Source: Methanobacteriota archaeon | Lineage (GTDB): Archaea > Thermoplasmatota > Thermoplasmata > Methanomassiliicoccales > Methanomassiliicoccaceae | DNA: 34,305 nucleotides | Assembly (NCBI GenBank): GCA_012518185.1 | Contig: JAAYTA010000031.1 | Coordinates: 1-34,305 of the forward strand | Direction of reading: 5' to 3' | In this document: one piece after another, positions 10,296 through 10,661 of the stretch | How positions within the stretch are numbered: the stretch's first letter is position 1 | Layout of the letters: every line of letters begins with the position of its first letter | Notes under the pieces: generated by a model | The model's input: only the letters and a program-made list of their open reading frames with translations | Database searches by the model: none | What the model was told of the DNA's origin: nothing | Program-made: the position numbers and the translations under genes

Positions 10296-10376
10296 TCAGA
10301 AGGGGAATCCCCAGCTGATTGATAGGTAAGTGGCTGCTATCACTGCAAACACTTTCAGATATGTGAAGTTGAACAT
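10296..10376 (-). CDS. 26-aa hydrophobic microprotein MFNFTYLKVFAVIAATYLSISWGFPF
   Basis: Not in the ORF track. Complement of 10296-10376 reads ATG TTC AAC TTC ACA TAT CTG AAA GTG TTT GCA GTG ATA GCA GCC ACT TAC CTA TCA ATC AGC TGG GGA TTC CCC TTC TGA. A strong GGAGGTG SD lies just upstream. A paralogue lies at 10572-10661. Confidence 0.72.
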   Translation of the reverse strand: MFNFTYLKVFAVIAATYLSISWGFPF

Positions 10377-10452
10377 TCGGTTTCACCTCCTTTTCACTTT
10401 TCCCCACCGGGATAATTCTATTTGGGAAAGATTACTATTTATCATTATCTAA
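10357..10452 (-). repeat. Leader repeat copy 1 (promoter/5' UTR/SD plus first 20 nt of microprotein CDS)
   Basis: 96 bp agatatgtgaagttgaacattcggtttcacctccttttcacttttccccaccgggataattctatttgggaaagattactatttatcattatctaa; 95/96 identical to 10642-10737. Confidence 0.95.
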
Positions 10453-10540
10453 TAAGATAGAGATAATATATTAAGAAATTTTTATGGTTAAAATAAATAT
10501 GATCTAGGATCAGTGGATTTTTGATATGGGCGCCTACATT

Positions 10541-10568
10541 CATAAAAAAAGAAAATTTGAAGATTTTT
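10541..10568 (-). terminator. Oligo-T tract downstream of microprotein copy 2 (archaeal-type terminator)
   Basis: Plus strand cataaaaaaagaaaatttgaagatttttt, i.e. AAAAAATCTTCAAATTTTCTTTTTTTATG on the minus strand, directly after the stop at 10572. Confidence 0.45.
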
Positions 10569-10571
10569 TGA

Positions 10572-10661
10572 TCATAGTGGTCCATTGAAAAATCCCCAAC
10601 TGATCGCGATATAGGTCAAAGCTACAGTTGCGCACAATTTGAGATATGTGAAGTTGAACAT
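10572..10661 (-). CDS. 29-aa hydrophobic microprotein MFNFTYLKLCATVALTYIAISWGFFNGPL
   Basis: Not in the ORF track. Complement of 10572-10661 is open from ATG to TGA with the same GGAGGTG leader. 17 of 24 aligned residues are identical to the 10296-10376 peptide, with several synonymous codon changes at conserved residues. Confidence 0.72.
   Translation of the reverse strand: MFNFTYLKLCATVALTYIAISWGFFNGPL

What the first reader, a model, noticed from the sequence alone, without database searches (positions are those of the whole stretch)
10296..10661. Tandem paralogous 26/29-aa membrane microproteins missed by ORF calling
Seen directly: two minus-strand ORFs encode MFNFTYLKVFAVIAATYLSISWGFPF and MFNFTYLKLCATVALTYIAISWGFFNGPL, each behind a GGAGGTG Shine-Dalgarno. 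Beyond the identical block, codons 8-24 have 5 identical codons, 5 purely synonymous differences and 7 amino-acid changes that stay mostly hydrophobic. Synonymous changes at conserved T, Y, S, A and F positions suggest selection on the peptide rather than simple DNA copying. Inference: single-span membrane peptides with an invariant N-terminal FNFTYLK and a membrane-interface ISWGF motif, possibly accessory subunits, toxin-like peptides or envelope-stress peptides. They sit between a surface protein gene and a polysaccharide deacetylase gene. I recognise no family.
Basis: partly seen in the sequence, partly recalled or inferred. Interest (0 to 1): 0.88.

Follow-up and report, generated by a model that had tools for sequence, protein, structure and literature searches.

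The report
Microproteins paired with archaeal surface protein
Two unannotated genes of 26 and 29 codons are real: in one family of methane-producing archaea, one to two genes of this kind, each with its own promoter, always lie just behind the gene of one large cell-surface protein, which suggests that these tiny membrane proteins help build or tune the cell envelope.

Summary
The window is from Methanomassiliicoccales. All five other genomes of the genus encode the peptide behind a GGAGGTGA Shine-Dalgarno, and dN/dS is 0.12. Searching by synteny instead of peptide sequence extended the finding: in two further genera of the same family, the same cassette (TATC-N6-GATA palindrome, TATA box, strong SD, 27-34 residue single-span peptide) lies directly downstream of the same surface protein. 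It is tandem in several genomes, although the peptides are only about 30% identical to those of the window's genus. Among 148 genomes of the order, the full-length surface protein and the microprotein occur in exactly the same 12. The palindrome also lies in front of the surface-protein gene in 9 of 12 genomes.

Leader peptides, chance ORFs and plasmid or viral origin are disfavoured. My best explanation is a highly expressed membrane microprotein co-regulated with, and probably serving, the surface protein (assembly, spacing or anchoring). This is inference: no expression or interaction data exist, and no known family matches. Existence of the gene family: about 0.97. Envelope or surface-protein role: about 0.5.

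The parts
10572..10661 (-). microprotein copy 1, 29 aa, MFNFTYLKLCATVALTYIAISWGFFNGPL
   Evidence: copy-1 relatives in G002, G003, G004; dN/dS
10296..10376 (-). microprotein copy 2, 26 aa, MFNFTYLKVFAVIAATYLSISWGFPF
   Evidence: relatives in G001-G005
10668..10675 (-). Shine-Dalgarno GGAGGTGA of copy 1
   Evidence: invariant (last 8 columns) in 18 cassettes of 3 genera
10383..10390 (-). Shine-Dalgarno GGAGGTGA of copy 2
10686..10697 (-). short leader hairpin TCCC-GGTG-GGGA, copy 1
   Evidence: fold; a C-rich/G-rich pair recurs in the cassettes, no formal covariation test
10401..10412 (-). short leader hairpin TCCC-GGTG-GGGA, copy 2
10721..10744 (-). promoter of copy 1: palindrome TATCATTTTAGATA plus TATA box (TAAATA)
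10436..10459 (-). promoter of copy 2: palindrome TATCTTATTAGATA plus TATA box (TAAATA)
10236..10259 (-). intrinsic-type terminator TGGCC-CACT-GGCCA + T-rich tail after copy 2; a GGCC-loop-GGCC hairpin follows the last or only copy in all six genomes of the genus
10887..12890 (-). partner candidate: 667-aa surface protein, N-terminal helix, disordered linker, beta-sandwich repeats, no Pfam/NCBIfam/PDB match
12972..12985 (-). same palindrome (TATCTTCTTAGATA) in the promoter of the surface-protein gene

Best explanation
The locus holds two copies of a monocistronic gene for a single-span membrane microprotein that belongs to a fast-evolving family found in one family (f1) of the Methanomassiliicoccales. 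SHOWN: conserved coding sequence under purifying selection; conserved autonomous cassette; position 0.2-0.46 kb downstream of one surface-protein gene on the same strand in every genome that has that gene; perfect co-occurrence with that protein in the genomes searched; a shared palindromic site in both promoters. INFERRED: one regulator acts through the TATC-N6-GATA palindrome to express the surface protein and the microprotein together and strongly; the microprotein is inserted in the cytoplasmic membrane and there works with the N-terminal membrane helix of the surface protein (667 aa, helix 2-27, then a disordered linker and a beta-sandwich ectodomain), helping its export, oligomeric spacing or anchoring. 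Recurrent tandem duplication then gives more dose or two slightly different partners.
For: Peptide in all six genomes of the genus, frame open, dN/dS 0.12; 0.15 in the second genus and 0.04 for the third genus' pair. The cassette was found downstream of every surface-protein orthologue in two more genera, by position, without using peptide similarity. The leader profile R1, built from those cassettes, gives strong matches (E <= 3e-10) only in that family in 148 genomes searched. Full-length surface protein in 12 of 148 genomes; microprotein in the same 12; two related genomes at 99% completeness (G006, G010) lack both. The exact bipartite motif TATCN6GATAN4TAAATA occurs 14 times in 15 genomes, 13 of them in front of a microprotein. 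The surface promoters carry exact TATCN6GATA in 8 of 12 by script, against 0.07 expected, plus G008 by eye because its locus was offset. R1 also weakly detects surface promoters in four genomes. One-mismatch sites recur in front of other N-anchored secreted proteins. RBS less structured than synonymous alternatives in the genus, mean z +0.88. The next gene is convergent in G001-G004, so the peptides stand alone. The surface protein has no C-terminal anchor in the model.
Against: No expression, localisation or interaction data. The 12 genomes are related, so co-occurrence is not 12 independent events. One further copy lies away from any surface gene (G009 C5), and a second type of microprotein with a weaker version of the leader follows a different secreted protein in G007 and G009, so a strict 1:1 pairing is not obligatory. 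Larger paralogues of the surface protein (G001, G004) have no such microprotein behind them. Charge pattern differs between genera (K near the N-terminus in the window's genus, RR at the C-terminus in g3, none in g4), so topology is not evidently conserved, and homology of the peptides between genera rests on synteny and leader, not on sequence (hhalign probability 4.5%). Hydrophobicity is marginal for a lone TM helix on a crude scale. The strong-promoter reading is consensus-based only.
Confidence: 0.5

Rival explanations
1. General membrane-acting small protein of the YohP type: abundant single-span peptide that changes membrane properties or lowers the membrane potential under some condition. 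The surface-protein neighbourhood reflects only a shared envelope or growth-phase regulon.
For: Size (27 aa), one marginal span, few charges, strong expression signals, divergent sequence with only general physicochemical constraint between genera. E. coli YohP, 27 aa, acts this way (PMC12719787).
Against: Perfect co-occurrence with one surface protein and fixed position directly behind it; strong within-genus conservation of residues argues for a specific protein contact.
Confidence: 0.2
2. Accessory subunit of another membrane complex (energy-converting complex, transporter or heme/cytochrome machinery), comparable to CcoM or archaeal MtrI, encoded apart from that complex.
For: Methanogens do have small regulatory subunits found late (MtrI of the Mtr complex, PMC12774963). 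The second microprotein type of G007/G009 lies near a CcmF/NrfE-like and NapH-like gene set.
Against: No gene of such a complex is conserved next to the cassette; the microprotein is limited to the 12 genomes with the surface protein, whereas core energy complexes are expected throughout the order (own knowledge).
Confidence: 0.17
3. Type I toxin-like membrane peptide.
For: 27-aa single-span hydrophobic peptides resemble DinQ-like toxins in size (DinQ: 27 aa, PMC3567139).
Against: Leader is short and the RBS region is less structured than synonymous alternatives, opposite to the structured or processed leaders typical of type I toxins; no antisense gene is evident (not tested by RNA data); distribution tracks a surface protein; no plasmid match.
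Confidence: 0.06
4. Leader peptide or upstream ORF that regulates the downstream gene by attenuation.
For: In the window and in G005 a deacetylase follows on the same strand.
Against: In G001-G004 the next gene is convergent (MTHFR operon where identified), yet the cassette is conserved; a terminator-like hairpin follows the last copy in all six genomes of the genus; each copy has its own promoter; purifying selection acts on the peptide.
Confidence: 0.02
5. Chance ORFs in a duplicated promoter/leader RNA; only the RNA or DNA is functional.
For: Promoter and leader are conserved over genera where the peptides diverge.
Against: dN/dS 0.12, 0.15, 0.04; start, stop and length kept in 20 copies; SD invariant at near-fixed spacing.
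Confidence: 0.02

Closest known systems
Escherichia coli YohP (27-aa single-span membrane protein; PMC7549839, PMC12719787)
   Same: length, single span, small membrane protein without catalytic domain
   Different: no sequence relation was tested; YohP is a stress/stationary-phase protein of bacteria; the archaeal cassette is tied to one surface protein and is repeatedly duplicated
Methanosarcina mazei MtrI and similar archaeal sORF proteins (PMC12774963)
   Same: lineage-restricted, previously unannotated small protein of a methanogen
   Different: MtrI binds the Mtr complex and its cobamide; the present peptides are single spans of 26-34 aa linked by synteny to a surface protein
Type I toxin peptides such as DinQ (PMC3567139)
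   Same: 27-aa single transmembrane peptide
   Different: DinQ has LexA control, processed mRNA and antisense RNAs; here an accessible SD, own TATA promoter, no evident antisense gene
Archaeal S-layer anchoring partners (SlaA/SlaB of Sulfolobales; own knowledge)
   Same: a surface protein with a separately encoded membrane partner
   Different: SlaB is a large coiled-coil stalk; these peptides have almost no extra-membrane part, and the surface protein has its own N-terminal membrane helix

Membership tests
Single-span membrane microprotein (general kind) | ORF of fewer than 50 codons under protein-level selection | tested here: met
   dN/dS 0.12/0.15/0.04, conserved start, stop and SD; translation itself not shown
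Single-span membrane microprotein (general kind) | one hydrophobic span long enough to cross the membrane | tested here: inconclusive
   17-residue Kyte-Doolittle maximum 1.25-2.1 but marginal on the Hessa scale; topology signals differ between genera
Type I toxin peptide (DinQ/TisB-like) | structured or processed leader that hides the SD | tested here: not met
   RBS region less structured than synonymous alternatives in the genus; mRNA processing not testable
Type I toxin peptide (DinQ/TisB-like) | antisense antitoxin RNA | not testable with these tools
   no RNA-seq; no Rfam match in the window
Leader peptide / attenuator | co-transcribed regulated gene directly downstream | tested here: not met
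   convergent gene downstream in G001-G004; terminator-like hairpin after the last copy
MtrI-like small subunit of an energy complex | gene position or distribution linked to the complex | tested here: not met
   restricted to 12 genomes with the surface protein; no complex gene conserved next to it
Named families in NCBIfam/PDB | profile or sequence match | tested here: not met
   NCBIfam: no match for five peptides; PDB sequences: none for the genus profile; general protein database not searchable below 40 aa
S-layer protein (for the neighbour, window 10887-12890) | secreted, repeated beta-sandwich domains, membrane anchor, lattice | tested here: inconclusive
   N-terminal helix, linker, beta-sandwich repeats in the model; only local Ig-like fold matches with TM-scores of at most 0.15 on the query; lattice formation not testable

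The most novel reading that the evidence does not exclude
A dedicated envelope microprotein: an archaeal surface coat built from an N-terminally anchored beta-sandwich protein plus a stoichiometric 26-34-residue membrane peptide that sets its spacing or anchoring. Both would be switched by one regulator through the TATC-N6-GATA palindrome, in a lineage whose envelope is suspected to contain a second membrane (PMC4243693).
Probability: 0.3. Interest if true: 0.75.

Novelty: new member of a known kind. Interest (0 to 1): 0.5.

Why it matters
Genes this short are skipped by common gene callers, and here the peptide diverges so fast that similarity search loses it between neighbouring genera. It could be followed only by synteny and by its promoter-leader cassette, a way to find other hidden microproteins. 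If it serves the surface protein, it would be a very small dedicated part of an archaeal envelope, in rumen and digester methanogens whose cell wall is poorly known. The shared palindrome also makes an envelope regulon of this group testable.

Tried and rejected
Peptide-similarity search alone: outside the genus only noise (phylum, 395 genomes), which would have suggested an orphan; rejected after the synteny search. DNA pattern SD+FTYLK in GTDB genomes: only congeners give convincing short membrane ORFs. Rfam: none. SD-sequestering hairpin formed by the conserved FT codons: looked plausible by eye and in the folds, rejected because the genus' sequences fold less, not more, than synonymous alternatives. 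Leader hairpin: recurs, but fold z-scores are weak (+0.8 to -1.7) and no covariation was shown. Sigma-70-type promoter hits in the scan are near chance level and irrelevant for archaea. Plasmid or viral origin: no match to the cassette in plasmids and no relative of the surface protein in viral contigs. Fold search of the surface protein gave only generic Ig-like/arrestin/integrin matches (TM at most 0.15 on the query), not informative beyond beta-sandwich repeats. First copy of the tandem: no consistent terminator found.

Full report
Check of the observation. The two ORFs, their SDs, neighbours and the codon tally (5 identical, 5 synonymous, 7 changed in codons 8-24) are exactly as described. 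In the 34 kb window these are the only ORFs of 18-50 aa that follow a strong seven-base SD at normal spacing.

Where it is. All five other genomes of the genus encode the peptide, two copies in tandem in three of them and one copy in two, always behind AAAGGAGGTGA. Alignment A1 keeps M, FTYLK, TY and W invariant.

Coding status. Pooled pairwise Nei-Gojobori estimates give dN/dS 0.12 for the genus, 0.15 in a second genus and 0.04 for the pair in a third. For the window pair alone, codons 9-24 give pS 0.83 and pN 0.26. In the genus the RBS region is less structured than synonymous alternatives (mean z +0.88), as expected for efficient translation. So the peptide is the selected product.

The family is wider than its sequence. 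A profile of the genus' peptides finds nothing convincing in 395 genomes of the phylum. I therefore searched with the neighbouring surface protein. In the two other genera of the same family that have it (g3: five genomes; g4: one), the sequence directly downstream carries the same cassette and a different single-span peptide: MFEMVYFTGSVIFLAATWTYVRMKAGRR and relatives in g3, MFALPYSFFYSTGVVFFAAWTTIAASGWLPFF and a near copy in g4. Eighteen leaders align with an invariant SD and nearly invariant TATA box and palindrome half. A sequence profile of the leader (R1) run over 148 genomes of the order gives E of 3e-10 or better only in this family (20 places), plus an additional microprotein type in G007/G009 at lower score. 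Most of those places were in the training set; the search shows that the cassette is not found elsewhere, and it added one new copy (G009 C5). Whether the peptides of the three genera are homologous by descent cannot be shown from sequence (hhalign probability 4.5%); it is inferred from position and leader.

Co-occurrence. The full-length surface protein occurs in 12 of 148 genomes (in G002 and G005 as two pieces). The microprotein is found in the same 12, each time on the same strand 0.2-0.46 kb downstream. Three relatives in the family lack both; two of them are 99% complete. The genomes are related, so this is strong association but not twelve independent tests. Larger paralogues of the surface protein in G001 and G004 have no microprotein behind them.

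Regulation. The motif TATC-N6-GATA-N4-TAAATA occurs exactly 14 times in 15 genomes of the family, 13 of them in front of a microprotein; the reversed control pattern, allowing one mismatch, gives 0-3 per genome. The palindrome is also in front of the surface-protein gene: exact in 8 of 12 by script (0.07 expected from shuffles), and in G008 by eye because that locus was offset. R1 finds surface promoters in four genomes at E 0.007-0.04. Several one-mismatch sites lie before other N-anchored secreted proteins, one of them recurring in most genomes of the genus, but also before a transporter, a methyltransferase and an FtsZ-like gene, so an envelope regulon is suggested, not shown. In the genus a GGCC-loop-GGCC hairpin follows the last copy in all six genomes (tool hit in the window).

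History. Outside the window, paralogous leaders within one genome of the genus are 64-72% identical; in the window 93%. The ORFs tend to group copy 1 with copy 1 and copy 2 with copy 2 across species, weakly supported. The identical 5' block in the window is thus best read as recent gene conversion. Tandem pairs in g1, g3 and g4 look like separate duplications.

The partner candidate. The 667-aa protein has no Pfam, NCBIfam or PDB match and 19 hits, itself included, in the large protein set. The model (mean pLDDT 76.8) shows an N-terminal helix 2-27, a disordered stretch to about residue 80 and beta-sandwich repeats, with no C-terminal anchor. Structure search gives only generic matches.

Mechanism. 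Shown: gene family, autonomous cassette, association with the surface protein, shared promoter element. Inferred: membrane insertion, joint regulation, physical partnership with the N-terminal helix of the surface protein. Rivals and their tests are listed separately. Leader peptide is made very unlikely by convergent downstream genes in four genomes. Toxin is unlikely but not excluded. A YohP-like general membrane role and a subunit of another complex remain open.

Verdict. A real, apparently undescribed, fast-evolving microprotein family of a known general kind; the role in the envelope is a testable inference.

Noticed in passing
L224:6804-6990 (G009 C4), L225:7368-7558 (G007 C25): A second type of single-span microprotein (M[LI]ELAFGNE[LI]VIGFAALWTAILIRVR...) with a weaker version of the same leader lies behind a PQQ-repeat/PKD secreted protein, next to CcmF/NrfE-like, NapH-like and 'choice-of-anchor V' genes, which suggests heme or c-type cytochrome assembly genes in this methanogen genus. 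Found in only two of 148 genomes.
   Followed up: partly
L226:8080-8181 (G009 C5): A third copy of the g3 microprotein (MFEFVYFSGSVIFLAATWCYIKVKSGRGGGPPT) with full leader, far from any surface-protein gene.
   Followed up: partly
L300, L292 and the same site in G001, G003, G004: A recurring palindrome of the form TATCnAATGCGATAnnnTTAAATC in front of a 405-407 aa N-anchored secreted protein (MKRSTAIVAAIV...) in G002 and G005, a candidate member of the same regulon.
   Followed up: partly
L036, L038, L039 between deacetylase and microprotein: An operon with oxidoreductase, ferredoxin and methylenetetrahydrofolate reductase genes lies between microprotein and deacetylase in G001, G003 and G004 (Pfam run on G003 only) but not in the window or in G005.
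   Followed up: no
L037:7283-9258 (RumEn M1): The surface-protein gene is split into two frames in this assembly (frameshift or assembly error).
   Followed up: no
window 5970-8720: FolD and formate-tetrahydrofolate ligase genes: tetrahydrofolate-type C1 enzymes in a Methanomassiliicoccales genome.
   Followed up: no
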